From: Bacteroidota bacterium | GTDB lineage: Bacteria; Bacteroidota; Bacteroidia; Bacteroidales; UBA12481 | Direction of reading: 5' to 3' | Length of the DNA stretch: 64,000 nucleotides | Assembly (NCBI GenBank): GCA_018669475.1 | Contig: JABHCC010000142.1 | Coordinates: 1 to 64,000, forward strand | Part shown: piece after piece, positions 46,493 through 64,000 of the stretch | Layout of the letters: every line of letters starts with the position of its first letter | Numbering within the stretch: the stretch's first letter is position 1 | Translations under genes and position numbers: made by a program | Notes under the pieces: model-generated | Database searches by the model: none | The model's input: the letters and a program-made list of their open reading frames with translations, nothing else | What the model was told of the DNA's origin: nothing

Positions 46493-46495
46493 GAT

Positions 46496-48781
46496 CTAGT
46501 TATCATACCTTAGTTTGATAAACCTCTTGACGATTGCATTATCACCATATATCACACGCAGAAAATAAATCCCTTCGGCGGCATTTATTATCTCGGGTAT
46601 TCCGGTATATGTATGTTCACCTTTGGCAAAGAATGTACCACTAAGAGGGGCCATCCAAATGGTTCTTCCAATATAATCCAACACTGAAATCCTTACCTGA
46701 GTTGATTCTTCCAAACCAATTTTCAGTGTTACATCTTCAATAAAAGGATTTGGATAAACGCCTGCAACAACTCCTGTAAAAACGGGATCTTCAATATCGG
46801 GATCAGAACCACCTGTGCCTCCCGTTCCGCCTGTTCCTGAGCCCATAACATTGGCTGCCCCGGGGCTTGGAATATCCATATATTCCCAATCTCCGGTACC
46901 GTCGCTATATCTCCCTAAAGAAATCTTATCATTTTGTCTGGGGAAAGTTTTACTATCAATCATTTCAGCATTTCCCGCCATATTCTGATAAATCCCGATT
47001 GACTCTCCCATACTTGCCAATTTGAAATCCAGATATAAGGGCCCCATGTCAGCATTAGAATTCGCCGTAAAAACGAGAAAGCCTTTGGGCTGAATAGTTG
47101 TAAGTTGGGGTTGATTGGCAGGAATCATATGTTTGAATGGATCTAGTAAAACATCAGTCAGGTACAAGCCCCCCATATCTATTGGCATATCAGAAGCATT
47201 GTATATTTCTATCCAGTCAGAGAAATTCCCTGATCCATCAACATTCACTGATAAGTTATTTGCCATAAACTCATTAATATACAATCCATCAACCAAATCA
47301 AATTCTCTTTTGTTCGCTGTACCAGGTGTTGGTACCGAAAGCAAATTCAATTCTCCATGTCCATCAGGGTAACGTCCATATGACACATCATAGGGCAATT
47401 CATCAAATGACCAATGGTCAATTATCACAAGTTCATCAGGCGTTTTTTGAACAATAGCAATGTTTTCTCCCTTACTGCTGAGTTCAAGATCCAGATGCAG
47501 AGGACCAAGTTCAGGATGGTGATCTGCTCTCAAAACAACATAACCATATGGAGGTATTGTTGTCTGGTTACGGTTTCCTCTGGGAATTTGCCATTTTTTG
47601 AGATATGAGAGCACATCAGTAATATACAAACCACCCATATCTACAGGAGTAGAATTGCTATTATAAATTTCAATCCAATCGCTACAAACACCAGAAGCAT
47701 CCGGGTATATGGTTTTATGTTTCGATACAATCTCATTTATATACAACCCCGTAATCGGCTCAAATACCAACATTTCATTCTCCATGAAAGGGGTCGGCTC
47801 AACAAATGTCACCAAATCCCCATGAGGACCATTTGGATATCTACCAAAGCTTTGATCAGGAGAAAGTGCTAAATAGGTAATATGATCAATGAGAATATAA
47901 TTATTCCCCGATTTTCGTGAAAGGAGTACTTTGCCACCCTGGCTTGGCAAGCGGAAATCCAGATGTAAGATCCCCCTGTCTGGTTCGTCATCTGCCCAAA
48001 AAAGCAGGTATCCTCCTGGTAAAATTGTTGTTAAATCATAATCAGTCTCCGGGATTTGCACAAGACCGCGTTGATTATGATCATTACTAATAAAAAGGCC
48101 TGCAACATTTTGAGCGGTATTACCACTATTATAAACCTCAATCCAATCAGGATAAAACCCATGCTCATCTGACAAATAGCTATCATTTTTAGCCATGAAC
48201 TCATTCAATGAAATATCCGCCACAGGATTGGCCCCGTTCTGATATCCGGGAGTGCCTCCATACCTCTTACTTAGTTCCCAATTCACAGGATCAGAGTAGT
48301 CAGTAGCTCCGGTTTTAAGTTCAATTGAGTAATGATGGATATTTGTTGGTATCGGCCAGGGATCATTTACTCCATATGTAATTCGGGATACAGTCTGGCC
48401 TGAACCATCAAGGATTTTAATAGTCTCTCCTGTATTACTAAGTGTTCCGCTATCCCATTCAAATTTATCGTTTACTCCTGCCGGATGTTGGGAAATATCC
48501 TTTACCAGAAGAACATAAGAGTCGGCAAGCAGGATATAATTATTTGGAAAGGTAAAATTTACAGCTTCAGTAAGCCGATAGCCACCCAGGTTAATTTGCT
48601 TATTATCTGCATTATAAATCTCAATGAATTCAAGATTTTCATTCTCCAATCCACCAAGCAGAGGCTTATAGCTAATTTCAGTTATTTGCAGGTTATCCGC
48701 AATTCCTTGATAACTAAGCAATGTAACTGCCAATAAGCAGACAATATTTATTAGTCTGTATTTTGCGAAAAATGCCTTCAT
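46496..48781 (-). CDS. secreted lamin-tail-domain array protein with T9SS sorting domain
   Basis: 761 residues. A signal peptide ends near SYQGIA. One type-A LTD (TEISYKPLLGG, FIEIYNADN, PWPIPTN, RYGGTPGYQN) is followed by three type-B LTDs of about 150 residues, each with a core like SDWIEIYN-GGLYITD-IPxxxxTTIxP-LHLDFxLxS-YGRYPDG-PTPG. A GTGGTGGTGG linker leads to the T9SS domain (VYPNPFIEDVTLKIGL, GIYFLRVIYG, KRFIKL). The same architecture recurs in the next three genes. Probably surface-attached; LTDs bind macromolecules, but the ligand is unknown. No beta-helix in this copy. Confidence 0.88.
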   Translation of the reverse strand: MKAFFAKYRLINIVCLLAVTLLSYQGIADNLQITEISYKPLLGGLENENLEFIEIYNADNKQINLGGYRLTEAVNFTFPNNYILLADSYVLLVKDISQHPAGVNDKFEWDSGTLSNTGETIKILDGSGQTVSRITYGVNDPWPIPTNIHHYSIELKTGATDYSDPVNWELSKRYGGTPGYQNGANPVADISLNEFMAKNDSYLSDEHGFYPDWIEVYNSGNTAQNVAGLFISNDHNQRGLVQIPETDYDLTTILPGGYLLFWADDEPDRGILHLDFRLPSQGGKVLLSRKSGNNYILIDHITYLALSPDQSFGRYPNGPHGDLVTFVEPTPFMENEMLVFEPITGLYINEIVSKHKTIYPDASGVCSDWIEIYNSNSTPVDMGGLYITDVLSYLKKWQIPRGNRNQTTIPPYGYVVLRADHHPELGPLHLDLELSSKGENIAIVQKTPDELVIIDHWSFDELPYDVSYGRYPDGHGELNLLSVPTPGTANKREFDLVDGLYINEFMANNLSVNVDGSGNFSDWIEIYNASDMPIDMGGLYLTDVLLDPFKHMIPANQPQLTTIQPKGFLVFTANSNADMGPLYLDFKLASMGESIGIYQNMAGNAEMIDSKTFPRQNDKISLGRYSDGTGDWEYMDIPSPGAANVMGSGTGGTGGTGGSDPDIEDPVFTGVVAGVYPNPFIEDVTLKIGLEESTQVRISVLDYIGRTIWMAPLSGTFFAKGEHTYTGIPEIINAAEGIYFLRVIYGDNAIVKRFIKLRYDN

Positions 48782-48873
48782 TAAGCATTATTGTTCCTAT
48801 GACCCTCAGAGGGTATGAAGTTACAGAAAATTCAGGAACAACAAAACAAAGGGATGTATTGATTTTCAAAGAT

Positions 48874-50073: not shown

Positions 50074-50160
50074 ACCTGAAAGCAGTTCTTCATGAACGAG
50101 TCGGTTCGATTCTCCGGGGCTTGGAATAGAAAAAACCTCAAAGTCCTCACCCCCATCAGG

Positions 50161-51294
50161 TTAGCGCCCATAACTAATATCAGGATACTGACGCTCATAA
50201 TCGATTTTGTCAATAAGCACAAAGTCACCATCATAGCTTTGCAAAATAGCCAGTTCACTCCCCTGACTAGGCAATTTGAAATCTAAATGCAACAATCCAT
50301 TCTGAGGTTTCTCATCTGCCCACAACAACAAGTATCCGCCAGGTTCAATTGTTGTTTGATCAAAATCATCAAGGCCAATCTGTCCCATATCAGGATGGTC
50401 AGGATCAATTGTAACATAAATACCTGCCACATTCAAATATTGTTCACTTATGTTAAACAATTCAATCCAGTCAGAATATTCACTAAATTCATCCCTGATA
50501 AAACCATCATTCTTTGGCATAACTTCATTAATAAGCACTTCAGAAATTAAGACATTTTCATTTGCCTTTCCAGGAGAACCACCATATTGATAACTTAGGT
50601 GCCACTTTGATCCGTCCTCATGCTCCAGGGTATTCTCGTTTAGCTCAATGCTATAATTATAGTATTCTGTAGGTTCTGGCCAGGGGGAATCATCTCCATA
50701 AGTAACTGAGAAAACAGTTTGCCCTTCTGAATTTGTAAGCAATATGGGTTCACTCTCATTGCTTAATCTACCATTATCCCATTCTTGAATCTCCCCTCCA
50801 AATCCGTCCCAGAATGATTCATCCTTCACCAAAATCATATATTCACCCGATGATAAATAAAGATTGGATTCAAATGTATAGGAGAATCCTCCCGAAAATT
50901 CAAATTCATTCAAATTAACAAGCTGATCACCTGCATTATATATTTCTATAAACTCCAGACCCTCTTCCTCGACCCCGTCAATCATGGGCCGATAATTTAT
51001 CTCTGTCAGAATTAGAAACAAAGTCGTTTCCTGCATTGTGGGTATGGCCCCAATATCTCTCCTTATACCATCAGGATCAAGGCTACCATCAGGATCACCG
51101 GCATCAATCGCAGGAGATCCTTCAGTTGATTCGAAATTCAGGCTCTCATGAGTCGCCCCAAATTTCACCACAAACGGAACTTTTTCTTCGGATTTTATTT
51201 CATCCTGACAGATGATCTGATATTCCTTACCCAATCCATGAGTACAGTTCAAAACGATCAGAATGACACACAGGCATGCTTCTTTTCCAATCAT
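50161..51294 (-). CDS. N-terminal fragment of the split LTD protein
   Basis: 377 residues: a signal peptide (ACLCVILIVLNCTHGLG), a scrap of beta-helix exit sequence (SPAIDAGDPDGSLDPDGIRR), one type-A LTD (TEINYRPMIDG, PWPEPTEYYNYSIEL) and a type-B LTD cut just after ISYGR. If the TAA is real, the protein would be exported to the periplasm but lacks the T9SS domain, so it could not reach the surface. Confidence 0.7.
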   Translation of the reverse strand: MIGKEACLCVILIVLNCTHGLGKEYQIICQDEIKSEEKVPFVVKFGATHESLNFESTEGSPAIDAGDPDGSLDPDGIRRDIGAIPTMQETTLFLILTEINYRPMIDGVEEEGLEFIEIYNAGDQLVNLNEFEFSGGFSYTFESNLYLSSGEYMILVKDESFWDGFGGEIQEWDNGRLSNESEPILLTNSEGQTVFSVTYGDDSPWPEPTEYYNYSIELNENTLEHEDGSKWHLSYQYGGSPGKANENVLISEVLINEVMPKNDGFIRDEFSEYSDWIELFNISEQYLNVAGIYVTIDPDHPDMGQIGLDDFDQTTIEPGGYLLLWADEKPQNGLLHLDFKLPSQGSELAILQSYDGDFVLIDKIDYERQYPDISYGR

Positions 51295-51370
51295 AACTTA
51301 AAGATAGATAATTTAATAACAACTGTATCTACCGACTAAATAATATTTTGAGCTGTCATCCCTAAAAAGA

Positions 51371-51406
51371 CAAAGGAGACATCACGATAATGTGATGTCT
51401 CCTTTG
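51371..51406 (-). terminator. terminator after tRNA-Leu
   Basis: A perfect 15-bp stem, 51371-51385 with 51392-51406, around a six-base loop, followed on the minus strand by TCTTTTTAGG. It ends the tRNA-Gly/tRNA-Leu transcript one base after the tRNA. Confidence 0.85.
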
Positions 51407-51490
51407 TACCCGGGGCCGGGCTCGAACCGGCACGGCCTAATGGCCACTGGATTTTAAGTCCAGCGCGTCTACCAATTCCGCCACCTGGGC
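51407..51490 (-). tRNA. tRNA-Leu (UAA)
   Basis: 84 bases with a long variable arm (GGCCATTAGGCC), as class II tRNAs have. Anticodon loop CTTAAAA gives UAA. T-loop TTCGAGC. The acceptor GCCCAGG/CCCGGGT has an A-C mismatch at position 5-68 and a terminal G-U. Discriminator A; CCA not encoded. Transcribed with tRNA-Gly upstream. Confidence 0.93.
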
Positions 51491-51494
51491 AAAT

Positions 51495-51512
51495 GGGTGT
51501 GGGTGTGGGTGT
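51495..51512. repeat. GGGTGT triple tandem repeat
   Basis: Three exact hexamers GGGTGT between tRNA-Leu and tRNA-Gly, another example of the short word arrays in this window. Confidence 0.7.
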
Positions 51513-51573
51513 AGGTTTGCTTCACTTATCATTATAAAGCCTGAATGATGGTAGACATCCAGGCTTATTTTTG

Positions 51574-51646
<73 letters not shown>

Positions 51647-51657
51647 TTTTGGGAATG

Positions 51658-51665
51658 CAAATATA
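51658..51665 (-). promoter_or_regulatory. -7 box of the tRNA-Gly/tRNA-Leu unit
   Basis: TATATTTG followed by C, 12 bases before the tRNA-Gly 5' end on the minus strand. The -33 region is a T-run without a clear TTTG. Confidence 0.55.
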
Positions 51666-51721
51666 GTTTGTTTTTGTAATCCCTAAAAAAAAAACTCTAC
51701 TTTTTTTAATCTTTCCTGAAA

Positions 51722-52288
51722 TTATCCACCTAATTCCCTGTATCTGAAACACTCACAAACATGGTCATTCACTATTCCACCTGATTGCAGAAAGGCATAA
51801 ACAATAGTGGATCCAACAAATTTAAACCCTTTACTCTTTAGACTCTTGCTAATTTCGTCAGAAAGTGAAGTACTGGCAGGCACTTCATTCATTGAATTCC
51901 AGGAATTCTGCACTACTTTTTCCTTTGTAAAACTCCAAATATAGTTATCAAAACTTCCGTGCTCTTTCTGTATCTCCATAAATGCTAAAGCATTTGAAAC
52001 AGTGGCCCTGATCTTCAGTTGGTTTCGAATAATACCAGCATCCAGCATCAAACTTTTGACCTTAGCTTCATCATACTGAGCAATAATAACAGGATCAAAA
52101 TCATCCAATGCTTTCCTGAAGTTATCCCTCTTATGCAAAACAGTCCTCCAGCTCAAACCTGCCTGAAAAGCATCAAGAACAATAAACTCAAACCATTTCT
52201 TGTCATCATGAACTATCACCCCCCATTCATGGTCATGATAATCAATCATTAAAGGATCGTTGGATGGCCAATCGCATCTTATCACCAT
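51722..52288 (-). CDS. tag: DNA-3-methyladenine glycosylase I
   Basis: 188 residues. Tag signatures: RCDWPSNDPLMIDYHDHEWG, FEFIVLDAFQAGLSW, and the C-terminal VNDHVCECF. Cys5, a His in YHDHEWG and the His/Cys of DHVCECF fit the structural zinc site known in E. coli Tag. It excises 3-methyladenine from DNA in base-excision repair. It is a housekeeping gene lying alone among the LTD genes and tRNAs. Confidence 0.95.
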   Translation of the reverse strand: MVIRCDWPSNDPLMIDYHDHEWGVIVHDDKKWFEFIVLDAFQAGLSWRTVLHKRDNFRKALDDFDPVIIAQYDEAKVKSLMLDAGIIRNQLKIRATVSNALAFMEIQKEHGSFDNYIWSFTKEKVVQNSWNSMNEVPASTSLSDEISKSLKSKGFKFVGSTIVYAFLQSGGIVNDHVCECFRYRELGG

Positions 52289-52301
52289 ATGTTGTATCTA
52301 A

Positions 52302-55241
52302 TTATTGTACAATTAATAGTCTTTTTACCTGTGTCAAATCATCAGTAATGACCTGAACGAATACAATCCCACAATATTTAAAACCATTGCTGAATTCTGC
52401 TATACTAATATTATGTATCCCTGTATTCATCAATTGTTCCCGCTTCACTAATTGCTCTGTTAAAACTTGTCCATTAAGGTCACAAATCCGAATAATAATT
52501 TTACGCTTTTCAATCCAGTCTCCAGAGAAGTGAATATTAATCTGCTCTGAAGCAGGATTTGGATAGACAAAGAAATCAAGATTATCAGATATCGGAAACA
52601 ATTCAGATGCTGTACTTCCATTACTTTTGCCGGGAGTTGAAATAGGGTAATACTGCCAACCAAGCTCACCATCATTTATTCGTCCATATGAAATGTCAAC
52701 AGTTTGGGGAGGATATTTTATACTATCAATAATTCGATTATAGCCCCATAATTCTTGGACCAGAACAATACATTCCCCACTACTTGCTAACCTAAAATCT
52801 AAATGATCAATACCAAGGTTAGGTAATTGATCAGCTCTGAATACATGAAATCCTCCAGACTCGATCAAAGTTGAATCTGGGTACTCCATACTAATCTGAT
52901 GAGAGAGAAAATTATCTGGATTATCTGAGAACCAAAGTCCTCCCATATCAATAGCAATATCTCCCTTATTATAAATTTCAATCCAATCAGAATACAAACC
53001 GAACTCATCGGGATGTTTATTCTCAACCTTAGCTGCAAATTCATTAATAACTAAATCCTCGATTAATAAATCTTCCGCTCTTGCATTAGGTGATCCAGGG
53101 GTTGGAACTTCAAAATACTCAGCTATTAAACCTCCATTGGGATACCTTCCATATGAAATATTAATTGCTTGAGAAGGGTAAGTTATCTCATTGATAGAAT
53201 AATAGCCTGTTTGGGTCAACTGTGTCAGGCCAACTTCCCCTCCACCACTTTTCAAAGTAAAATTCAAATGAAAAACACCTTTGTCAGGATCTTCATCGGC
53301 AAATAATAGTATAAATTGACCTGGAGCCAGTGTTGTTGTATTAGGCTGATCATCCGGAATCAAATATAAATCAGGTTCTTCCAAATCATTTGTCACATAC
53401 AAGCCCCCCAGATTGATATGCTGATCCCCCTTATTAAATATTTCTATCCAGTCAGAATAATCCCCATATTCATCAGCATAGTAGGTTCCTGCTTTAGCCG
53501 TTAGTTCATTAATTACAAGATCATGTAATAAAGTCCTTTTACCAGATCGGCCCGGGGTCCCGTTTGGATCATATGACAATCTCCAATTATCTGCATTATT
53601 GGGTGAATCTGAAACATCGTTCATCTCAATAGAATAACTATATAATGATGGAAGAATCGGCCATGGGTTCTGATCATCATATTCCAGCTCCATAAGAACT
53701 TGTCCATCAGAATTGCTTACAACTAAAACGTCTCCTTCGTTACTTAATTGGCCAGAAAACCATTGATAAACCTGATATCCCATATTCTCATATACCAGTG
53801 CAGATTTAGCAACAATAATATATTCTCCTGGACTTATCAAAGTTCCATCCATAAATGTATAACTAATTGCACCACTGATAGATACTCCACCTAAGTCTAT
53901 GCTTTCTTCTTCTCTATTTAAGATCTCAATAAACTCATAAGGCGGATTTTCTGACCCATCCTCTAAAGGACGGTAATTAATTTCAGTAATTGCAATATTA
54001 TAATAGCCTTCATGTGTAAAGGGTATTGCTCCCATATCTGACCGGGTTCCATCCGGATCATTTGGACTGGTTGGATCTCCTGAATCTATTGCTGGTGAGT
54101 CAGCTTGAAGAGAAAAATCCCCATTCCCCGGATCTACTAATCTGGGATCTCTATAGATATTACCAGTGCCCGACATACTTCCGGCATCTGAAATACAATA
54201 ATTAATTGTAACAGTTGAATTATGTTCACTAGTAAATGATTGGTCGCAATTATCAATAATAGTATTAGTAACATAAAGAATACCTCCTCCATAGTTAACC
54301 TTTGGATTACTCGTGCCAGACACACCAACTTCACAATTAAACACAGTGTTATTATTTGCTGTAACTACTGCAAGATCTTTTGAAACAATTCCACCAGCGG
54401 CATTAAATACAATATTTCTCTCCACCAGTGCCCTCGATTGTTCACCAATTGAAATACCCTTATCAGACATATCACTTATCCTATTTTCAGTGATTATAAC
54501 ATTAGAATCATCACCACCAATATCTATTCCATCAGAATTATCCCCACTGAATCCATAAATAATATTTCCATGAATAAGAGCAGTAGAAAAATCAAAATCA
54601 ATTGCATCGCAATTATCTTTGTCATTTCCAATAAATTCACAGTACTGAATAAGGCCAGAAGAATTCTCTGCGAAATTCAAGTAATCACTACCTGCTTTGT
54701 CGCAATAGAATGATGAGTATTGAATTGTAACATTATCACATGAGACAATCCTTAATGGCTCATAATTATCGGTAAAATTAACGTGATCAATTAGCAAATC
54801 ATCTGCTTTATATGCAGTTATTGCCGCTTGTTCTCTGCCTGGGTTATCACCAAGTGTAGTGCCAGATATGTTAACATATTCAATGACACAAAGCCCTGAT
54901 GGGTCAACCAAACTCAAAATATCCCAATTGGGATGCCCGGATTTAGGCTCAAGGACAATAGGACCCCATTCTCTCCCTTTCATTTCCAACTGCCCCTCGA
55001 TATACAAACCAGCTCCTTGAGCAAACTGAATAACAACTCCAGCTTCCACCGTGAGCTTTACTCCTGAAATCACTGTGACATTACTATTCGCTACATAAGG
55101 CGAATTATCCTGTGTAAGTGTCATTGGTGATTCTATTGTTGCAGGAAGATTAGTTCCCGTCGGAATCATCCTTGGCTTTCCCAAAGTCCCTAATATCACT
55201 CCTAATAAAATCACCCAGCCTATAATGAACTTTTTCAGCAT
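52302..55241 (-). CDS. secreted beta-helix/LTD array protein with T9SS sorting domain
   Basis: 979 residues. Signal peptide (IIGWVILLGVILGTLG). Residues about 40-395 form a right-handed parallel beta-helix (VTVISGVKLTVEAGVVIQFA entry strand; repeated short NxI/V turns such as ALIHGNIIYGFSGDNSDGI), closing with SPAIDSGDPTSPNDPDGTRS. Then a type-A LTD (TEINYRPLEDG, PWPILPS), two type-B LTDs (INELTAKAGTYYADEYGDYS; INEFAAKVENKHPDEFGLYS) and a T9SS tail (VYPNPASEQINIHFSG). It is the complete version of the architecture from which the split neighbour appears to have lost the helix. Likely cell-surface or released; polysaccharide binding is a guess. Confidence 0.88.
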   Translation of the reverse strand: MLKKFIIGWVILLGVILGTLGKPRMIPTGTNLPATIESPMTLTQDNSPYVANSNVTVISGVKLTVEAGVVIQFAQGAGLYIEGQLEMKGREWGPIVLEPKSGHPNWDILSLVDPSGLCVIEYVNISGTTLGDNPGREQAAITAYKADDLLIDHVNFTDNYEPLRIVSCDNVTIQYSSFYCDKAGSDYLNFAENSSGLIQYCEFIGNDKDNCDAIDFDFSTALIHGNIIYGFSGDNSDGIDIGGDDSNVIITENRISDMSDKGISIGEQSRALVERNIVFNAAGGIVSKDLAVVTANNNTVFNCEVGVSGTSNPKVNYGGGILYVTNTIIDNCDQSFTSEHNSTVTINYCISDAGSMSGTGNIYRDPRLVDPGNGDFSLQADSPAIDSGDPTSPNDPDGTRSDMGAIPFTHEGYYNIAITEINYRPLEDGSENPPYEFIEILNREEESIDLGGVSISGAISYTFMDGTLISPGEYIIVAKSALVYENMGYQVYQWFSGQLSNEGDVLVVSNSDGQVLMELEYDDQNPWPILPSLYSYSIEMNDVSDSPNNADNWRLSYDPNGTPGRSGKRTLLHDLVINELTAKAGTYYADEYGDYSDWIEIFNKGDQHINLGGLYVTNDLEEPDLYLIPDDQPNTTTLAPGQFILLFADEDPDKGVFHLNFTLKSGGGEVGLTQLTQTGYYSINEITYPSQAINISYGRYPNGGLIAEYFEVPTPGSPNARAEDLLIEDLVINEFAAKVENKHPDEFGLYSDWIEIYNKGDIAIDMGGLWFSDNPDNFLSHQISMEYPDSTLIESGGFHVFRADQLPNLGIDHLDFRLASSGECIVLVQELWGYNRIIDSIKYPPQTVDISYGRINDGELGWQYYPISTPGKSNGSTASELFPISDNLDFFVYPNPASEQINIHFSGDWIEKRKIIIRICDLNGQVLTEQLVKREQLMNTGIHNISIAEFSNGFKYCGIVFVQVITDDLTQVKRLLIVQ

Positions 55242-55336
55242 ATAATGTTTTGTTTTACTTGTTAATCAATAGAATATTTATAACTATTATTACTAAAACT
55301 AGGAATATTTTGATGTGTTTTTTTACATTTCAAATA

Positions 55337-58300
55337 TTAATAAACTACTATGCGTCTTGTCTCTGATTTTTCTCCGATCCTCAGTGTAATAAAATAATAA
55401 CCAGGAGATAACTTAAAATTTCTAATATTGATAGTTTTCTCTATTTTCCCTGGTGAAAATAACCCATCTCTCAAATCTATACTGTATACTGAATAACCAT
55501 ACATGTTAGTCATATTTAAATGTATTAGGCTAGATTCAGATAATTGGATTTGTAAATGCAAGAGTTCACTGGCTGGATTAGGATAAACAAGCCATTGCAC
55601 AATATCCTGATGGTTATAATTAGCGGAACTTGAACCTAAATTACTTTGCAATGGTGTTGGTGAATCAAAGAATACCCAGTTTGCATCCCCATCCTCTTCC
55701 CGACCATATGAAATATTAGAAGTCTGAGCACCATAACTAACTTCGTCAATAATGGTGTTAATTCCAAACAATACTTGAGATAGTGCAACATATTCTCCAC
55801 TTCCGGCCAACTGGAAATTAGTGTGTTGTACACCTAAAGCAGGATCTCCTGATGGATAAATCATTAGGTATCCCTTGCCTGGTATTGTCGTTAACTCTGA
55901 ATTTGTTTCCGGGATCTGCCAAAGGGTCAAATCTGACTCCCTATCAGTTATATACAAACCTCCAATATTAATGGATTCACTGTTCGAGTTATAGAGCTCA
56001 ATCCAATCATCATACAATCCAACATTATTAATATGAACTGAAGAATTCCTGGCCATTATCTCATTAATATATACTCCAGTAATTCCTGAAATATTACTCC
56101 CATTTGCCCTTCCAGGAGTCGGACTGGAGAAAAAAGTCCAAGTATCATGACCATCAGATGATCGTCCATATGAAACATCTCCTGTCTGCTCCGGATAAAC
56201 CAAACCCTCTATCTCATTAACAATACCATTTGTAATACTGTACAAACCAATTTGGCCACCACTACCTGACAAAAGGAAAGACAAATGATATGCACCAGCA
56301 TCATCAAGTTCATCAGCATGAACGACCAGATATCCTCCCGGTGGGATAAATAATGAGTCCTGATGGTCAGCTGTAAATTCATACATGTCTGGCGTCTCAA
56401 AGTCCCGTGTTATAAATAGATGATTAAGCGTTATAAAATGATTTGACCCATTATAAAACTCTATCCAATCACTGATAAAATCAAATTCATCAGGAAAGGT
56501 AGTCAGATTTCTAGCCATAAACTCATTAATATACAAGTCTTCCATTGGTGGAATTGAATTGTCCCTTCCAGGAGTTCCACCAATATAATAGCTATTTCTC
56601 CAAGAGTGAACAGTTGAATTATCAAGCTCTGTTTCCACAAACTCCAGGCTTGGGCCCTTGCCCATTGGCCATTGACTCCATAGATCTGAATCATTATAAA
56701 TTATTTCATCAATTATATCTCCATCAGGGCTCATCAATATAATTTCTCCGTTTTCTATGGGAAGATCACCATCTGTCCATTGAACATGGATAAAATCTTG
56801 TCCAGCAAAAACTGAAACATCTTGACAAACAACGAAATAATCTCCAGGACCTACCTCATATCCAGCACTGAAAGTGTAGGAAACATCCCCCCCAAAAGAA
56901 TATCCATCCAAATCTACAGTTCCACTACCCATATTGTGGATTTCAACAAACTTCGTTGACACAAGTGGATCAGAGGGCAAATAATGAATTTCCGTTATCA
57001 TAAGGTTTCCAATACTAGCACCATTTAGCAGGGTGTACCTGCCGATATCAGTTCGTGAACCATCATCATCATTTGCATATGCCGGATCACCATTGTTTAT
57101 AGCAACTGATCCATTTGACAATCTGAAGTCGGACGTAGAAGGTTCCACAAACCTTGGATTTCCTGTAATATTTCCCAATCCAGGATAATTATCACCAGTA
57201 CTCAAATTAAATTCAGCTGATAGACTTGTACCATCTGAGACCTTAAAATCCTGATCTTCACTCTGAGCTATAATAGAATTTGTTATATGAGCATTAGCCC
57301 CACTAAAAGAACCATCAGAATGACTTAAGGAAATAGCACTTCGATTCTGATAAAAAGTAATATGGTCAAAATCACCTGAAGATCCATGATCAAGCTCAAT
57401 CCCAATATCAGATTGTTCAATAACAGAAAATCTGACATCAACTGGCGATTGTTTAGCCGAAAGTGCTTTATCTTCAATTTCATCAAAATATGAATCCCGT
57501 ACGCTAACAGGCAAATCAGTTATAAATGAACATCCATCATCTCCAATTTTATAGAAATAGGATCCGCTTATAGTAATTTGACCTTCCACAGAACCGTCAA
57601 AACCGAAAGCTGTAATCGCATCTTGATTGTCTTCGGGATTCGGGTTATCATTATTTGGGAGATACATAAAATGAGATCCCGTAATAGTCGCTGGAGAATT
57701 CTCTAACTCAATTCCGGATAGACAATTATAAAGAACAGAATTATGCATCTCTAGTTTTGCATCTTTTACATGAACACCTTTACCCCCTAATTCGATCATA
57801 TATACATTATCAAGAAAAAGAGGTCTCTCAGACTCTATTACTGCTTGCTTGTCATATGAACCTGGATTTTTGGAAATACCTTTCCCGCCTTGTACAAGAA
57901 AGCAGTGCGAAATATTTACGGATCCATATCCACTATGAATCTGTATCCCACCCCATCTCTCACCAGCCGCGAGGGGAAGAATAACAACAGGATTACCAGG
58001 AACTCCATTTATTTGTATTTGCCCTTCAACTGTGATATTGGCATATTTTTTTATGAATATTCTTGTTCCTGCTTCAATCGTCAAAGTAGCATTAGCAGGA
58101 ATATTCAAAGCTGAAATTATTTCATAATCATAATCTGCAGTCCATACCTGGGAGCGAAGAATCTTTTCACTTCTTATTCTGATTGGCCTGTGCGAATCAA
58201 ATGTTAAGTCATGTGAATCATCCTCAAGTTTTAACACTACATCCTCATCCATAGAGGGGGTGATCCACTCCAATCCCAAGCCTTTTCTTAAATAAACCTG

Positions 58301-61300
58301 ATCTGTTATTATGCTCTGTTGCACTAATTCAATATTTTCAGATCGATTCATTGTTTCTGGGAATAAATCAGGATCTGAATACCTGACTAACACAGGCAGT
58401 GTTTGCCCGGAGCTAAAGATTTTGGGTGCAATAAGGTTTTCACTTGGAGCCACATTAGAGCTTCGAGGTGTTGGCTCTGCAAAGGATTGCACTTCGGGAG
58501 AACCATCAGGAAACCTTCCAAACGAGATGTCTTCACTACCTGCAGGATAATCCAACTTATCAATCTCCTTCAACGTAACTCCATCAAAATCTAAATGATA
58601 CAATCCAAACATCCCACCAGACACATCGGGTAACAAGCTGGTATGAAACAGGCCCTGACCTGTCAGGCCATCCAGGTAGAGAATAATATAGTCTCCCGAG
58701 GGAATAAGTGTACTGAAAGCATCAGAAATTGGAATTTGATGATCCATTTGGCTGTTTTCATTCCGAATTATGTAGCCCCCAATATTTATAGGAGCATCTG
58801 AACCATTATATACCTCAATCCATGCAGAATGTTTATCCCGATCATCAAGGTTAACTGAATTATTATTAACAAGAATCTCATTGAGTTTTACCTTTGTGAA
58901 ATCTGGAACTCGGTTCAATTCACCTGGTGTCCCCCAAGCTTCATAACTCGAACGCCAATTTTCTTGTGCAGAGTTGTCATCCCCCGGATTACTTAACTCC
59001 AGGCTGAATCCATTTCCATCAGCAAGAGGACTCCAGGGATCCTGTCCTGAATAGGATATTTCAGCAAGCTTCTTCCCATTTACATCAATAAAAGTCAATG
59101 TTTCACCAGTATTGGACAATTTCTCACTACCCCAATCAAAAACTTTATTATCCAGATACTTATAGGATTCAGCATTAGCAGTCAAAATAAGATATTCTCC
59201 ACCGTTCAACCATGTATTAAATGGGAAAGTAAAATCAATTGCTCCTTGCAGTTGGTAACCTGAAATATTAGTTGCCTCATTATAGGGATTATATAATTCG
59301 ATAAATTCAAAATCGCTATCCTTTCCATGACTGGCTGAAGGATTGTAATAAATCTCATTTACAACAATAGCTCCAGCTCCGACAGTTGATTGATAAGAGA
59401 ATTTACCAATATCTGGCCGTGTTCCATCAGGGTCTGGCTCAAACTCAGGATCTCCTTTATCAATTGCTGGTGAATCATACTTTAAATGCAGACTATTGAC
59501 TCCTGTACCAATGAATTTCGGATCACCTAAGAGGTTATTCTCTCCTGGTAACACTTTAGTATCTGAAAGAGAATAATAAAATGTTGGTTCGTTAGATAAA
59601 TCGTCATTCCATGCAACATCAGAAAACTTCGATAAAATTGAATTCCAAACTTCGGTTGCTCCAAAAATTGAATTCTTTACTGGACGAGAAGTCTCATAAA
59701 AGGTTGTATGGCTAACTTTTGCGTCAGACCACCAACCAGGAACAATTCCTGCATTGCATCCAATAATCAGGCACCGGTCAAATGATGCATCTGACCAATA
59801 TCCACATGAAGATGCCTTATCCATAATTTCAAAAAAGAGGGTATTATAAACCTCTATGTCAGAAGCAAGCATGTCAATTGCATCATCTTCAATATTTGCA
59901 ACAACACTATTATCAAGTCTTGAAGGAGGATGTTCATCATTCAAATCCTTCCAAAAATAAATTCCATCATTGTCATTACCTGTACGTTCCCGATCAGGAT
60001 CTGGAATATCTACTATCCATGTATGGTCTACTAAACTATAAGATTGTCTAAATTCAGGTCCCATAGCTGAAGTAGCAAACAAACATTCATCAATAATTAC
60101 TTCAGCAGATTCAGACCCAAATCCTTTCCCTATATTTTCAAAAATATAACAGTTAAACATACAAATATCAGCAAACGAACTTCTAACTACGGCCTGAGTT
60201 TCAGTATGAAAAAACAAGCGGCTTGGATCACTCCCACCATGGAAGAAAAAGGCATGATTTAAAACTGATAGCCCATCATGATCACGAATCTCAAGACCTC
60301 CCCATTTTTCATCACTCTCATGTGGCATAAACACAACTGGCATTCCAGGAGTTCCATTTATAAACACAGGTCCATTCGAAATTATATTCGCCTTTGAACC
60401 AAATCTTATCCTGACCCCTTTTTCAATTGTCAGGGAACCAAACTCTCCTATAGTTAATTCATCTTCAATAAAGTAGTTAACTCCAGAGGTTAAAGTTAAA
60501 TCTGTATTATAAGTAGGTGACAATGTAACTACTGGAATATCTGAAACAACATGAATAAAAGCTACATCATCAAGATCTTCAACTCTGATTTCAACATCCT
60601 TATTTGCAGTAAGTTTCACCACAGCATAACCAACTCCTTTGGTAAATCGCATAATTGATGGTTCAACTGCTGCTGATCCAACATCAATTGTTTTCTCTCC
60701 ATGAAAGGTATAATCAACACTACCATCTTCATTTAATACTTTAGCATATATAGGGACCCAATCTCCTGATTCACACGTATGAGGTACAATAATATATTTT
60801 GATCCCGGGCGATTTAATTGATCAGGACTCGGGTCGGAGAATGTTAACCACTCTCCATCTCCGTTAGGAAACCTGCCATTAGATTTTCCTTGGGCCTGCA
60901 ATCCATAATTGATATGATCAATTTGTGTCACCCAATCTATAAAACCCATACTAATAACAATATCACCTGAATTACCTCCAATTTTAAAACCACAATGCTT
61001 AAATCCCAGATCAGGCTGATTATCTGCCAAGAATAACAGTACTTCACCCGGCTCAACAGTACTTTCATCTGGAAAACCAAATGGAATCATCCATTTAAGC
61101 GGATCTAGTGGATCATCGCTAAGATATAATCCTCCAACATCAATCGGTTTGTCATTCCCATTATATATTTCTATCCAATCAGTGTTTTTTAAGTACCCTT
61201 CAGATTCAGGTAGAGTAAGAAACTCATTTATGGAAAGATTTGCCAGTGCAATTGAATTTATAATGGTGGGAGTCCCTCCAGCTCCCTGACTGGCCCTCCA

Positions 61301-64000
61301 ATTATTCCCATTATTATTGTCATCTCCCAGGTTCAAAAGCTCAACTGAGGCTCCATTCAATGATCCTTTTTCAGGCCAGGGTGCATTTATAGAATAGCTT
61401 ACCTCATCCACTATATCTCCATTAGGGGAATTAATTTTCAAGGTTTCTCCATTGGTTGACAGATTACCACTAGTCCATTGGAATACCTGACCCTGAATTG
61501 TATTGAAATTATTCAAATTCTTCACCACTAACAGCTTCTCTTTAGCCTCTAAAATTGTACCTACGGGAAAGACATAGGATATTCCCACCGTAAAAGCATA
61601 TCCTGAAATATCAATAGAATGATCTCCAATATTTGAAACCTCAATAAAGCCAGCTTCAGTACCACCATTATTATCTGGAGGATTGTAGGCAATTTCTGAT
61701 ATTACGACCTGACTTTCTGTGACTTTAACAAATTCAGCTGCCAAATTGAAATCATTTGCTGTAACAATGGTAACCGGGTTTTCTAACGATTTTCCTTCTG
61801 TAACACCTGATAAGGCTAAATCAAAACTCAAATCATTAGAACTTGGAACATCCTGATGTACTTCAACTGCAAATGTATTAGTACCTGACACCAATAAATC
61901 AATGGCCAATTCAGTATGGTGATATGTTCTTTCGTCAACCCATCCTGCCATGGTGCTCGCATATGTCTGAAAATCTATTACTCCAGATGGCATATTAGAT
62001 CGGTATACCTCAACACCATTTAAATATACAACAGCTCCATCATCTCTCAATAAATCTAGGTTTAGCTTACTATATTGATTTAAGTCAATAACTTCAAATT
62101 CCTTTCTGAAGTAATAGGTAATATGGCCACTATTAATATCTGTATCATTTTCATTTTGAAAGCCAAGGTTAGCATTGCCTGAACTCCAACTATTATCATC
62201 AAATCCCACCCCAATCCAAGCTGTTCCCTGATTACTTCCATCATCCAAATATTTCCACTCGGATTTGGATAATACAATGCTGGTGCCACTTGAGACTCCA
62301 CTATTCCAACCATTAAACTTAAAACCAGGAGTGGGCACTGCCTCGAAGCTAAGAGGTATATCCTTGGCGAACTTAGTTATGGATTGATCATGGTCAATTT
62401 CTATTCCGTCCTCAACTATTCTTCCACTATTCTCTGGAATAATTGAAAAAACACCATCAATATCACCAGCCAAATTAAAAAAGTCTTCCAGGTAATTCCT
62501 TGTTATTGAAGGCCTGTTGGTAGCATAATCTCGCATAACCTGCACTTTTTTCTTCCAGTCAGCCTTACTCGTAATCATTCCTGGCCAGGTACCTCCCCAC
62601 CGATCAAGATGCCGATCAATCTGACCATCAATTTGAGCAGCTAGGCTATCAATATAATGGATTACCCTATCCGGATGGAAAACAGTTTGATCAACTACTA
62701 ATAGCCTTGAAATAAATCGATCTGTGAAATCCTCATTCTCAATTAAATGTGACATAAGAGGATCATTCTCACCTAATTGTTCCAAAACATCCAGATCAAT
62801 GAAGGAATAACCATAGTCAAGATCAAAAAGCAACCATTTAAATTTGCCGTCGGGCGTTTTCGGACGCCAAACTCTCCTATTATGACGCCAACTTCTGTTG
62901 GAAGAGATAACTTGCACAATTATGTAATCAATATAGTTGTCAATATCCATTAATGATGCAACCATTTCATAATTCTCATCCTTAGATAAATCAGCTGTTG
63001 TTACGAAATTCAACAGCGTTTTATAAGCACCAACATCACCAGAAATAATCTCTATACTTGCGGGAGAGTCATCATTGTCAATAAAAAGAACATCCAGGTT
63101 TTCCGGATCAACACCATGATGAGAGGCAAGGTAGTTTTCATTATACTTCTCCCGAATATTGTGGATCCCCATATATTCTCCGTTTAAAAAAAGAATACTT
63201 GGACGATATGCTTGGACATCAATATTTAGCTGATCCTGGACTATGCTTTGAATCATACCGTCTCTAAATAAAGTGTACCGCCAGTCATCACTAGAGCTAC
63301 GCAGTAAAAACGATTCAAAGAAATTAAGCGGCATATGTGAAAATAGAGGATAATTGATATAACCTACACCCAGGCTTTGTCTGGCATAAATAGCCAATGA
63401 TTTCTCCGGGAAATTTATCGCACCTCTCCCAAATAATCTGATATCCACATCAGCAACTATACCCCTGACACCATCAGGTTCAAAAAACTCTAAAGTTGCA
63501 GGTCGTTCCCAGGGCTTTCTTGTTGCGACGTTAGCGTCCAGATAAATCCCAACACTATTGTCATACAAATAATCATCTTCAGTACTGATCGAGAAAACGG
63601 GCAAACTAATATCCTCATTAATAAAATAGGTATTACTTATGGTTTCTCCAGGTAGCAGTCCAGGCTCAAAAACTTTAGCCTTTATAACAGTCGTTTCATC
63701 GATGGCAATTGTCGAACTATATCTGCTTGAATTAAACCGTGGTGTACCTCCATCTGTCGTATACCTGATAACTCCCTCAGCAGAATTGGTTTCAAGTTGC
63801 AATTGCAATGATCCTGAATAGAAGCCTCCTTCATTGGAAAACTGCACCCTTCCAGCCTGTTCAATAAGATTAACCCCATCGCTATTCTCTGTTCCTGCAG
63901 TTGGATTGGCAAAATATTGAAGTTTCCCTAAATCATTCGGATCTCTTCCGTAAGATATGTCAAAGTATTGTTGTGGAAGATCAATAGTATCCACAGGAAA
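55337..64000 (-). CDS. giant CotH-kinase/beta-helix/LTD surface protein with T9SS sorting domain (5' end outside window)
   Basis: At least 2887 residues; the frame is still open at the right edge, so the start and signal lie beyond. From there: the end of a type-B LTD, a chitobiase-like beta-sandwich (IRYTTDGGTPRFNSSRYS), a CotH-kinase domain (about 63.6-62.5 kb) with NGEYMGIHNIREKYNENY and LLFDLDYGYSF, a jelly-roll-like region (62.3-61.8 kb), type-A and type-B LTDs (61.7-60.8 kb), beta-helix 1 (60.5-59.4 kb), LTD A and B (59.4-58.4 kb), beta-helix 2 (58.2-57.0 kb), LTD A and two B (57.0-55.6 kb), and a T9SS tail (VYPNPASELLHLQIQL). CotH domains are atypical protein kinases; an exported one in this setting is unusual. 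Confidence 0.87.
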   Translation of the reverse strand, partial: FPVDTIDLPQQYFDISYGRDPNDLGKLQYFANPTAGTENSDGVNLIEQAGRVQFSNEGGFYSGSLQLQLETNSAEGVIRYTTDGGTPRFNSSRYSSTIAIDETTVIKAKVFEPGLLPGETISNTYFINEDISLPVFSISTEDDYLYDNSVGIYLDANVATRKPWERPATLEFFEPDGVRGIVADVDIRLFGRGAINFPEKSLAIYARQSLGVGYINYPLFSHMPLNFFESFLLRSSSDDWRYTLFRDGMIQSIVQDQLNIDVQAYRPSILFLNGEYMGIHNIREKYNENYLASHHGVDPENLDVLFIDNDDSPASIEIISGDVGAYKTLLNFVTTADLSKDENYEMVASLMDIDNYIDYIIVQVISSNRSWRHNRRVWRPKTPDGKFKWLLFDLDYGYSFIDLDVLEQLGENDPLMSHLIENEDFTDRFISRLLVVDQTVFHPDRVIHYIDSLAAQIDGQIDRHLDRWGGTWPGMITSKADWKKKVQVMRDYATNRPSITRNYLEDFFNLAGDIDGVFSIIPENSGRIVEDGIEIDHDQSITKFAKDIPLSFEAVPTPGFKFNGWNSGVSSGTSIVLSKSEWKYLDDGSNQGTAWIGVGFDDNSWSSGNANLGFQNENDTDINSGHITYYFRKEFEVIDLNQYSKLNLDLLRDDGAVVYLNGVEVYRSNMPSGVIDFQTYASTMAGWVDERTYHHTELAIDLLVSGTNTFAVEVHQDVPSSNDLSFDLALSGVTEGKSLENPVTIVTANDFNLAAEFVKVTESQVVISEIAYNPPDNNGGTEAGFIEVSNIGDHSIDISGYAFTVGISYVFPVGTILEAKEKLLVVKNLNNFNTIQGQVFQWTSGNLSTNGETLKINSPNGDIVDEVSYSINAPWPEKGSLNGASVELLNLGDDNNNGNNWRASQGAGGTPTIINSIALANLSINEFLTLPESEGYLKNTDWIEIYNGNDKPIDVGGLYLSDDPLDPLKWMIPFGFPDESTVEPGEVLLFLADNQPDLGFKHCGFKIGGNSGDIVISMGFIDWVTQIDHINYGLQAQGKSNGRFPNGDGEWLTFSDPSPDQLNRPGSKYIIVPHTCESGDWVPIYAKVLNEDGSVDYTFHGEKTIDVGSAAVEPSIMRFTKGVGYAVVKLTANKDVEIRVEDLDDVAFIHVVSDIPVVTLSPTYNTDLTLTSGVNYFIEDELTIGEFGSLTIEKGVRIRFGSKANIISNGPVFINGTPGMPVVFMPHESDEKWGGLEIRDHDGLSVLNHAFFFHGGSDPSRLFFHTETQAVVRSSFADICMFNCYIFENIGKGFGSESAEVIIDECLFATSAMGPEFRQSYSLVDHTWIVDIPDPDRERTGNDNDGIYFWKDLNDEHPPSRLDNSVVANIEDDAIDMLASDIEVYNTLFFEIMDKASSCGYWSDASFDRCLIIGCNAGIVPGWWSDAKVSHTTFYETSRPVKNSIFGATEVWNSILSKFSDVAWNDDLSNEPTFYYSLSDTKVLPGENNLLGDPKFIGTGVNSLHLKYDSPAIDKGDPEFEPDPDGTRPDIGKFSYQSTVGAGAIVVNEIYYNPSASHGKDSDFEFIELYNPYNEATNISGYQLQGAIDFTFPFNTWLNGGEYLILTANAESYKYLDNKVFDWGSEKLSNTGETLTFIDVNGKKLAEISYSGQDPWSPLADGNGFSLELSNPGDDNSAQENWRSSYEAWGTPGELNRVPDFTKVKLNEILVNNNSVNLDDRDKHSAWIEVYNGSDAPINIGGYIIRNENSQMDHQIPISDAFSTLIPSGDYIILYLDGLTGQGLFHTSLLPDVSGGMFGLYHLDFDGVTLKEIDKLDYPAGSEDISFGRFPDGSPEVQSFAEPTPRSSNVAPSENLIAPKIFSSGQTLPVLVRYSDPDLFPETMNRSENIELVQQSIITDQVYLRKGLGLEWITPSMDEDVVLKLEDDSHDLTFDSHRPIRIRSEKILRSQVWTADYDYEIISALNIPANATLTIEAGTRIFIKKYANITVEGQIQINGVPGNPVVILPLAAGERWGGIQIHSGYGSVNISHCFLVQGGKGISKNPGSYDKQAVIESERPLFLDNVYMIELGGKGVHVKDAKLEMHNSVLYNCLSGIELENSPATITGSHFMYLPNNDNPNPEDNQDAITAFGFDGSVEGQITISGSYFYKIGDDGCSFITDLPVSVRDSYFDEIEDKALSAKQSPVDVRFSVIEQSDIGIELDHGSSGDFDHITFYQNRSAISLSHSDGSFSGANAHITNSIIAQSEDQDFKVSDGTSLSAEFNLSTGDNYPGLGNITGNPRFVEPSTSDFRLSNGSVAINNGDPAYANDDDGSRTDIGRYTLLNGASIGNLMITEIHYLPSDPLVSTKFVEIHNMGSGTVDLDGYSFGGDVSYTFSAGYEVGPGDYFVVCQDVSVFAGQDFIHVQWTDGDLPIENGEIILMSPDGDIIDEIIYNDSDLWSQWPMGKGPSLEFVETELDNSTVHSWRNSYYIGGTPGRDNSIPPMEDLYINEFMARNLTTFPDEFDFISDWIEFYNGSNHFITLNHLFITRDFETPDMYEFTADHQDSLFIPPGGYLVVHADELDDAGAYHLSFLLSGSGGQIGLYSITNGIVNEIEGLVYPEQTGDVSYGRSSDGHDTWTFFSSPTPGRANGSNISGITGVYINEIMARNSSVHINNVGLYDDWIELYNSNSESINIGGLYITDRESDLTLWQIPETNSELTTIPGKGYLMIYPSGDPALGVQHTNFQLAGSGEYVALSQVLFGINTIIDEVSYGAQTSNISYGREEDGDANWVFFDSPTPLQSNLGSSSANYNHQDIVQWLVYPNPASELLHLQIQLSESSLIHLNMTNMYGYSVYSIDLRDGLFSPGKIEKTINIRNFKLSPGYYFITLRIGEKSETRRIVVY

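What the first reader, a model, noticed from the sequence alone, without database searches (positions are those of the whole stretch)
46496..64000. Tandem family of beta-helix/lamin-tail-array proteins exported by T9SS, with a CotH kinase in the largest
Seen: four co-directional genes share a modular order (optional beta-helix, one type-A LTD with a PWP-x-SIEL signature, several type-B LTDs of ~150 residues with a WIEIYN...GGLYITD...LHLDF...YGRxPDG...PTPG frame, T9SS tail). The giant member repeats the helix-A-B block twice and adds a CotH-kinase domain. Known: LTD, CotH and beta-helix domains occur together in Bacteroidota; T9SS tails mark surface or released proteins. Inferred: the cluster expanded by duplication and block shuffling and makes a co-displayed surface layer or adhesive fibre, possibly with the CotH domain phosphorylating partners during export.
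Basis: partly seen in the sequence, partly recalled or inferred. Interest (0 to 1): 0.75.

Follow-up and report, generated by a model that had tools for sequence, protein, structure and literature searches.

The report
Exported surface proteins with disarmed kinase
A bacterium carries an inserted set of four related genes for large, probably exported surface proteins; the biggest contains a kinase-shaped domain that lacks the key catalytic residue, and its sister copy elsewhere in the genome sits beside genes that look like a machine for making and exporting a polysaccharide.

Summary
Four minus-strand genes encode lamin-tail-domain (LTD) proteins with type IX secretion (T9SS) tails. The second is broken by an in-frame stop and has lost most of its beta-helix. 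The giant runs past the window (3,186 aa). Two tRNA genes and a tag glycosylase gene interrupt the run. In relatives the flanking genes are neighbours, so w1+w2 and w3+giant look like two insertions on either side of that cassette.

The giant is not a local block shuffle. A 47%-identical, nearly gap-free paralog lies on contig C162, and their LTDs pair by position. In four genomes the C162-type giant lies beside a TPR/YaiO barrel gene; a SPOR/HEAT gene (three genomes) and a PgaC-like glycosyltransferase (two, partial in a third) follow: a putative exopolysaccharide locus.

The CotH domain is predicted to fold like CotH kinase (Z 32) but has Ser at the catalytic Asp. Serine marks one clade (43 of 113 sequences); 57 of 60 CotH domains sampled as a control have Asp. 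A structural or binding role is likelier than ordinary phosphorylation.

Best reading: T9SS-exported, polysaccharide-associated surface or matrix scaffolds, duplicated and partly decaying. New variant of a known kind.

The parts
46496..48781 (-). w1, 761 aa: LTD A, three LTD B, T9SS tail; no beta-helix
48874..51294 (-). w2, broken gene of 806 codons: short N-terminal stub, end of a beta-helix, LTD A, three LTD B, T9SS tail
50161..50163 (-). in-frame TAA stop inside the first LTD B of w2
   Evidence: window and contig agree
51406..51490 (-). tRNA-Leu (TAA), part of the conserved cassette between the two insertions
51573..51646 (-). tRNA-Gly (GCC), same cassette
51722..52288 (-). tag, DNA-3-methyladenine glycosylase I; backbone gene
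52302..55241 (-). w3, 979 aa: beta-helix (about residues 30-410), LTD A, two LTD B, T9SS tail
55337..64000 (-). giant, 3186 aa (continues to 64897 on contig C77): N-terminal domain (unnamed, by eye), LTD B, CHB_HEX/Fn3-assoc, CotH, a second copy of the N-terminal domain (by eye), A-B, helix, A-B, helix, A-B-B, T9SS tail
62507..63442 (-). CotH kinase-fold domain of the giant; Ser at the catalytic-Asp position, metal-binding Asp kept
63644..63832 (-). CHB_HEX_C_1 / Fn3-associated domain before CotH
60812..61708 (-). giant block 1: LTD A (61256-61708) and LTD B (60812-61237)
58454..60811 (-). giant block 2: helix region (by homology to w3), LTD A and LTD B
55628..58453 (-). giant block 3: helix region (by homology to w3), LTD A and two LTD B

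Best explanation
The cluster encodes T9SS-exported, multi-domain surface or matrix proteins of a bacterium that is presumably one of the Bacteroidota. The giant is a duplicate of a protein that in this family is encoded at a putative exopolysaccharide synthesis and export locus (giant - TPR/YaiO barrel protein - unknown protein - SPOR/HEAT protein - PgaC-like glycosyltransferase). After export, the beta-helices, whose nearest solved folds are alginate epimerases, PL6 lyases and tailspikes, would bind or lie along a polysaccharide, and the chain of LTD folds would act as spacers and contact modules. The CotH-fold domain lacks the catalytic Asp and would act as a pseudokinase-like binding domain, not as an ordinary kinase. 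The copies in this window entered as two insertions flanking a tRNA-Leu/tRNA-Gly/tag cassette, and one of them (w2) is already decaying. Shown by computation: domains, paralogy, the locus association in related genomes, insertion synteny, the Asp-to-Ser change and the predicted fold. Inferred: export, polysaccharide binding, matrix role, loss of kinase activity.
For: Domains and tails above cut-off; SprA present. Giant paralog 47% identical over 3164 columns with 12 gap positions. Locus order: giant beside TPR/YaiO in 4 genomes (G000 C162, G001 C91, G003 C111, G005 C85); the unknown gene and the SPOR/HEAT gene follow in 3 (the G003 contig ends first); the GT2 gene follows in G000 and G005, with a partial copy at the end of the G001 contig. 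Co-occurrence: of 12 genomes of family f1, matches of 700 residues or more to 2,027 residues of the giant (window 55628-61708) occur in G000, G001, G003 and G005; in the other 8 the longest listed match is about 340 residues. TPR/YaiO at 41-43% over nearly all 786 residues occurs outside G000 in the same three, with only weaker partial matches in three of the other 8. The GT2's best NCBIfam hit is TIGR03937 PgaC_IcaA, E 4e-36, below its cut-off. Insertion synteny: 5 of 5 fetched relatives that cover it keep M28 peptidase, tRNA-Leu, tRNA-Gly and tag in that order (one with extra cargo, one with only an M28 remnant); of 5 that extend beyond tag on the other side, 4 have mutS next and 1 (G010) another ORF. 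CotH: Ser at the catalytic position in the 4 giants whose CotH is known (window, C162, G003, G005) and in 39 of 40 named loci, one not covering it; 34 of 34 in alignment A3; as a control, 57 Asp, 2 Ser and 1 His in 60 other CotH domains. One branch on the tree, support 93. Fold: 5jd9 Z 32.1, rmsd 2.5, 327 aligned. Helix of w3: AlgG 4nk6 Z 32.5, rmsd 2.2, 304 aligned. Precedents linking CotH proteins with polysaccharide: PMC7112168, PMC12345266, PMC8250860 (passages).
Against: The window copy itself is not next to polysaccharide genes among the neighbours examined, and none of the four locus genes was found (blastp, E 1e-4) in the fetched flanks of the 40 named CotH loci, so the link may hold only in this family. 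Co-occurrence is 4 genomes of one family, which may share the block by descent; some of the other 8 are incomplete (67 and 80%). The GT2 is far below the PgaC cut-off, and no deacetylase was looked for in the genome. The metal-binding Asp and the catalytic-loop Asn are kept, so some nucleotide chemistry may remain. Helix similarity shows a fold, not a ligand. No expression or secretion data.
Confidence: 0.5

Rival explanations
1. Active enzyme of another kind: the Ser-type CotH domain binds nucleotide with its kept Asn and Asp and transfers something (AMP, or phosphate with another base) to a surface protein or sugar.
For: Ser, the following His-Asn and the DxD are invariant in 34 of 34 sequences of A3, which suggests selection on that site; predicted CotH fold intact.
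Against: The residue before the metal-binding Asp, aromatic in 66 of 69 Asp-type domains, is aromatic in 4 of 43 Ser-type ones; in CotH a Trp at or near this place stacks on the adenine (Trp245, PMC12189002 passage; the pairing is my inference). The window giant keeps Phe. Nucleotide is scarce outside the cell (general knowledge).
Confidence: 0.2
2. Adhesin or surface layer without any special link to polysaccharide: the proteins make a co-displayed coat or fibre.
For: T9SS tails, repeated LTDs and long beta-helices fit adhesins; PfbA, a streptococcal adhesin, is among the helix matches (Z 26.6, rmsd 2.7, 289 aligned).
Against: Neighbourhood of the C162-type giant with polysaccharide-like genes; w2 is broken, so a fixed four-part layer is unlikely.
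Confidence: 0.2
3. Degradative complex: LTD/CotH/beta-helix proteins act on external polysaccharide, comparable to the cellulosomal LTD-LTD-Fn3-CotH protein Cthe_0239.
For: Nearest solved folds of the helix are an alginate epimerase and PL6 lyases; Cthe_0239 has LTD, Fn3 and CotH (PMC6083626 passage).
Against: No catalytic glycoside hydrolase or polysaccharide lyase family and no dockerin matched in the window proteins at E 0.01 (CHB_HEX_C_1 is a C-terminal accessory domain).
Confidence: 0.1

Closest known systems
CotH kinase (Bacillus spore coat; PF08757; PDB 5jd9, 5jda)
   Same: Predicted fold over 327 residues; metal-binding Asp and catalytic-loop Asn kept
   Different: Catalytic Asp replaced by Ser; domain sits inside a T9SS-tailed LTD protein
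T9SS type A cargo proteins (TIGR04183/PF18962)
   Same: C-terminal sorting domain above cut-off in all four
   Different: Nothing special about the tail; function of the cargo unknown
B-CotH-helix-A-tail proteins of about 1,500 aa in MAGs (for example L087, L089, L104)
   Same: LTD, CHB_HEX, Ser-type CotH, beta-helix, LTD A and T9SS tail in the same order (the tail of L087 is under the Pfam and just over the NCBIfam cut-off)
   Different: The giant adds further A-B and helix units; no polysaccharide locus seen in their fetched flanks
Cthe_0239 of Clostridium thermocellum (LTD, LTD, Fn3, CotH; cellulosomal)
   Same: LTD and CotH in one extracellular protein (PMC6083626 passage)
   Different: No dockerin matched here; T9SS tail instead; beta-helices added
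CotH-like accessory proteins of Pel loci (SIR_1594 of Streptococcus intermedius)
   Same: Secreted CotH-domain protein encoded with polysaccharide genes, whose mutant has changed Pel level and reduced aggregation (PMC12345266 passages; PMC7112168 passages)
   Different: Different polysaccharide system; no LTD or T9SS mentioned in the passages

Membership tests
Lamin tail domain proteins (PF00932) | LTD above the curated cut-off | tested here: met
   (all five pieces above 34.3 bits); human lamin tails among the weaker Foldseek hits of the w3 model (E about 0.006)
T9SS type A cargo | C-terminal type A sorting domain above cut-off | tested here: met
   (for w2 in the piece after the stop)
T9SS type A cargo | T9SS machinery in the genome | tested here: met
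   SprA (TIGR04189) 2688 bits; other components not searched
T9SS type A cargo | Protein exported by T9SS | not testable with these tools
   needs secretome of wild type and T9SS mutant
CotH kinases | CotH profile and fold | tested here: met
   PF08757 134 bits; model against 5jd9 Z 32.1, rmsd 2.5, 327 aligned
CotH kinases | Catalytic Asp (D228 of B. subtilis CotH; D228Q is inactive, PMC7821199 passage) | tested here: not met
   Ser in the window domain; column assigned by alignment to 5jd9 and by the 23-residue spacing to D251
CotH kinases | Metal-binding Asp (D251) | tested here: met
CotH kinases | Kinase activity | not testable with these tools
   needs purified domain
Poly-GlcNAc (Pga/Ica) synthase-dependent systems (C162 locus) | PgaC/IcaA synthase above the equivalog cut-off | tested here: not met
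   best NCBIfam hit, but 124.9 bits against 422.3
Poly-GlcNAc (Pga/Ica) synthase-dependent systems (C162 locus) | TPR plus outer-membrane barrel exporter | tested here: inconclusive
   TPR repeats plus YaiO barrel (PF19413 82.7 bits); PgaA equivalog only 38.5 bits against 366.65 for the G005 protein
Poly-GlcNAc (Pga/Ica) synthase-dependent systems (C162 locus) | N-deacetylase partner (PgaB/IcaB) | not tested
   genome not searched for it; the 652-aa locus protein has no Pfam or NCBIfam match
Cellulosomal LTD/CotH proteins | Dockerin | tested here: not met
   no dockerin in the Pfam scan of the window proteins at E 0.01 (first 301 residues of the giant not in that scan)

The most novel reading that the evidence does not exclude
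The Ser-type CotH domains are a distinct Bacteroidota-wide subfamily in which an extracellular kinase fold lost its catalytic Asp once and has been kept under selection for another job (binding or a different nucleotide transfer). In one family the subfamily has been built into a 3,200-residue beta-helix/LTD protein that works as the T9SS-exported partner of a synthase-dependent exopolysaccharide, so that polysaccharide export and T9SS export jointly build the matrix.
Probability: 0.25. Interest if true: 0.65.

Novelty: new variant of a known kind. Interest (0 to 1): 0.45.

Why it matters
LTD and CotH domains are frequent in this genome (43 and 12 matches) and CotH is found in 38 of 60 genomes searched around it, yet in the open-licence library I found no paper with CotH, Bacteroidetes and type IX secretion together, none with lamin tail domain and T9SS, two with lamin tail domain and Bacteroidetes (listing only, not opened) and one with lamin tail domain and CotH (a cellulosome paper). 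If the Ser-type clade has no kinase activity, the label 'CotH kinase' misleads. The link of the C162-type giant to a polysaccharide-like locus gives a direct, testable hypothesis for what such giants do.

Tried and rejected
Origin of the giant by block shuffling inside the cluster: rejected, because its LTDs pair by position with the C162 paralog and at 6 of 8 positions lie next to giants of other genera, and the paralogs align over 3164 columns with 12 gap positions. Some mixing exists: the last LTD of the G001 protein L056:1754-4942 groups with the last LTD of the giants (0.955), while its A and first B group with those of w1 and w2. Many nodes of those trees have low support.

tRNA-targeted integration: w1+w2 sit at the 3' side of tRNA-Leu, but no shared word of 11 bases in direct orientation joins the tRNA-Leu side to the M28 side, and none of 9 joins tag to mutS. 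No integrase was seen among the window proteins that I scanned, which are a part of them. The mechanism stays unknown.

Polysaccharide genes near the named relatives: no hit at E 1e-4 in the fetched stretches of 40 loci, many of which are short contigs. The stop in w2 as a recoded codon: nothing supports it; two other LTD matches in relatives also contain a stop (G031 and G040). An error in this draft assembly is not excluded.

Foreign origin by base composition: w3 and the giant are 36.9 and 37.6% GC, w1 and w2 39.7 and 39.8%, the backbone 39.6 and 40.0%, the C162 giant 37.6%; not decisive.

phmmer of the single CotH domain against the PDB found nothing up to E 1; the profile of five found 5jd9 at 3.7e-8. 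The 40 named loci are biased, because the scan used two peptide patterns from the giants, and several are near-copies of each other. So I took 60 further CotH domains as a control: hand-picked from the 140 matches, mostly near full length, those already held left out. Five of the 60 are from this genome. The Ser/Asp tree is FastTree, with long branches flagged; 113 of 116 rows, those of at least 220 aa, were kept. Alignment A3 holds 33 of the 40 named loci. The match at G000 C104 (partial) was not examined. In one search one of 56 rows (L112) covered neither site and one (L107) not the second.

Synteny around tag: of the 11 other family genomes 8 have a tag match; 6 of these were fetched, and G002 and G004, with fragmentary matches, were not. 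The w3 model is only fair (mean pLDDT 70, pTM 0.44, six sequences; helix blocks mostly 70-90 with dips). The Nguyen 2016 CotH paper is not held; its mutants are quoted from passages of PMC7821199.

I also mended counts and wording.
Full report
What is there. On the minus strand of 46496-64000 lie four genes for LTD proteins with T9SS tails. w1 (46496-48781, 761 aa) is A-B-B-B. w2 (48874-51294) is A-B-B-B with a stop inside the first B. w3 (52302-55241, 979 aa) is helix-A-B-B. The giant (from 55337, past the window to 64897, 3186 aa) is B-CotH-A-B-helix-A-B-helix-A-B-B. Profiles pass curated cut-offs for LTD, tail and CotH, and for the helix in w3 only. Between w2 and w3 lie tRNA-Leu, tRNA-Gly and tag. 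The genome has 43 LTD matches, 12 CotH matches, at least 150 T9SS tails and one strong SprA, so the parts are ordinary for this organism. It is a draft genome of 215 contigs, presumably of the Bacteroidota (inferred from SprA, the tails and the named relatives; its name is not known to me).

The second gene is decaying. Its reading frame is open except for one TAA at 50161-50163; window and contig agree. Just after its presumed signal peptide, 22 residues match the start of the G001 protein L056:1754-4942 (score 54, 0 of 1000 shuffles as high), but the rest of that N-terminal domain and nearly all of the helix are missing and the frame resumes at the helix end. The part after the stop still has a T9SS tail above cut-off. 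So it has one large in-frame deletion, relative to that protein, and one stop. Intact relatives exist. An assembly error at the stop cannot be excluded.

Two insertions beside a conserved cassette. In six family genomes fetched around tag, the order M28 peptidase - tRNA-Leu - tRNA-Gly - tag is kept in the 5 whose contigs cover it (G005, G006, G009, G010, G011). G011 has only an M28 remnant (113 aligned residues), and G010 carries other genes (acyltransferase/GNAT, methyltransferase and one more) between M28 and tRNA-Leu. Beyond tag, mutS comes next in 4 of the 5 that extend there (G001, G005, G006, G011; abutting or within 0.4 kb); in G010 another ORF does. In the window, w1+w2 fill the M28/tRNA-Leu gap (46493-51405), and w3, the giant and a metallophosphoesterase gene fill the tag/mutS gap (52289-66429, the last part beyond the window). 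In the genus mate G001 mutS abuts tag, so the second insertion is younger than that split or was lost there; the first gap is not covered in G001. The metallophosphoesterase has its close homolog on another contig in G006 and G010. No shared words at the ends.

The giant is a paralog. On C162:92190-101835 a 3214-aa protein has the same order of LTDs and CotH; 1502 of 3164 aligned positions are identical, with 12 gap positions. Separate trees of A and B domains put 7 of the 8 LTDs of the window giant with the same position of the C162 giant (the third A at only 0.603); at the second B the C162 copy groups with G003 and G005 first (0.708). At 6 of 8 positions the neighbours are giants of G001, G003 or G005, some at low support. 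The C-terminal halves give (C162, window) together with support 1.0, at 44.6% identity, against 32-36% to G001, G003 and G005. Hence the repeated helix-A-B order predates the cluster, and the window giant arose by duplication of the whole gene or arrived from a relative. The A domains of w1, w2, w3 and the G001 protein form their own clade (0.943). These trees held only two genomes outside the family, so they do not test an origin from further away.

The C162 locus. The giant is next to a TPR/YaiO barrel gene in four genomes. An opposite-strand protein of about 650 aa without any Pfam or NCBIfam match and a SPOR/HEAT protein follow (G000, G001, G005), then a family-2 glycosyltransferase whose best NCBIfam hit is the poly-GlcNAc synthase PgaC/IcaA, well below that model's cut-off (G000, G005, partial in G001). 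Among the 12 genomes of the family, long matches to the giant occur in G000, G001, G003 and G005 and not in the other 8, and the full-length TPR/YaiO gene has the same distribution; three of the other 8 have weaker partial matches to it. Some of the 8 are incomplete. A synthase plus a TPR-barrel protein resembles synthase-dependent exopolysaccharide systems (recalled); the membership test for Pga/Ica is not met. Between G000 and G001 the locus is no more similar than between G000 and G005 (GT2 78/78%, a SPOR/HEAT piece 64/63%, unknown protein 37/37%, YaiO 39/42%), although mutS is 90/76% and tag 75/67%. The locus may be exchanged between lineages, or parts of it evolve fast.

The CotH domain. 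A model from 34 sequences (mean pLDDT 77, pTM 0.83) matches Bacillus cereus CotH 5jd9 with Z 32.1, rmsd 2.5, 327 aligned; the next chain, a PI4-kinase, is at Z 12.7. In B. subtilis CotH the D228Q and D251A forms are inactive (PMC7821199, passages); CotH has residues corresponding to PKA D166, N171 and D184 (PMC12189002, passage). That D228 and D251 are the first and last of these, and their columns, are my inference from the alignment to 5jd9 and the 23-residue spacing. The window domain has Ser at the first and Asp at the second. The C162, G003 and G005 giants do too, and 39 of 40 named loci have Ser at the first site, one not covering it. As a control outside that biased set, 57 of 60 other CotH domains have Asp there, 2 Ser (G010, G033) and 1 His. 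On a tree of 113 rows the 43 Ser rows are one side of one branch (support 93; two changes in all with the His row). The residue before D251 is aromatic in 66 of 69 Asp rows and 4 of 43 Ser rows; the window giant has Phe. This argues against ordinary phosphorylation by this clade and leaves nucleotide binding open.

The wider clade. Named relatives with complete ORFs share one plan, LTD B, Ser-type CotH, LTD A near the C-terminus, most about 1,500 aa; three scanned with Pfam also have CHB_HEX, a beta-helix and a T9SS tail (one tail under the Pfam cut-off). LTD A is in 30 and LTD B in 33 of the 40 CotH ORFs, many of them cut by contig ends. Record titles name Bacteroidales, Flavobacteriales, Saprospiraceae, Prolixibacteraceae, Flammeovirgaceae and others, and one Latescibacterota MAG. 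The giant is this plan enlarged.

What the helix may do. The w3 model places its helix on alginate epimerase AlgG (Z 32.5, rmsd 2.2, 304 aligned), PL6 alginate lyases, phage tailspikes and the adhesin PfbA. Right-handed beta-helices of this kind often handle polysaccharides (general knowledge); a fold match does not show a ligand.

Mechanism and likelihood. Most likely (0.5): T9SS-exported matrix or surface scaffolds that associate with a self-made polysaccharide, with the CotH fold as a binding domain. Precedents: the mutant of the secreted CotH-like SIR_1594 has changed Pel levels and reduced aggregation in Streptococcus intermedius (PMC12345266, passages), CotH-like genes adjoin Pel loci (PMC7112168, passages), and a CotH protein is among the candidate stalk genes of Zetaproteobacteria (PMC8250860, one passage). 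Print: no paper with CotH, Bacteroidetes and type IX secretion, none with lamin tail domain and T9SS, none with YaiO, exopolysaccharide and Bacteroidetes; CotH with pseudokinase gave 12 papers, 10 listed, of which I read passages of two, neither about this clade. Only a PMC open-licence library was searched.

Noticed in passing
L077 (JABHYP010000547.1, 3,698 bp): The CotH domain closest to the window giant among the 33 named ones in A3 (47% identity) is on a short contig of a MAG labelled Latescibacterota; transfer or a misplaced contig.
   Followed up: no
L116:1676-5328 (G010): The gap between M28 peptidase and tRNA-Leu holds other cargo in G010 (acyltransferase/GNAT, methyltransferase and a further gene), so the site may be an insertion hot spot.
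   Followed up: partly
C162 locus (L035, L071) against L057 and L055: The polysaccharide-like locus is no more similar between genus mates than between genera, unlike mutS; it may be swapped between lineages.
   Followed up: partly
L035:2104-4062 and L055:6785-8746: Conserved protein of about 650 aa in the C162 locus, on the opposite strand, with no Pfam or NCBIfam match.
   Followed up: no
L058:1415-7105 (G005 C13): Two tandem, related T9SS-type LTD proteins with two LTD B each (938 and 926 aa open frames; helix and tail shown by Pfam for the first): another duplication of short LTD genes in the family.
   Followed up: no
G000:C171:352175-353155 (L178): A CotH domain with His at the catalytic-Asp position, on a long branch.
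   Followed up: no
window 31100-34447: One chain with B12-binding, MeaB and methylmalonyl-CoA mutase domains.
   Followed up: no
contig C77, between the giant and the metallophosphoesterase gene and between that gene and mutS (beyond the window): Short repeated words flank the inserted metallophosphoesterase gene (by eye).
   Followed up: no
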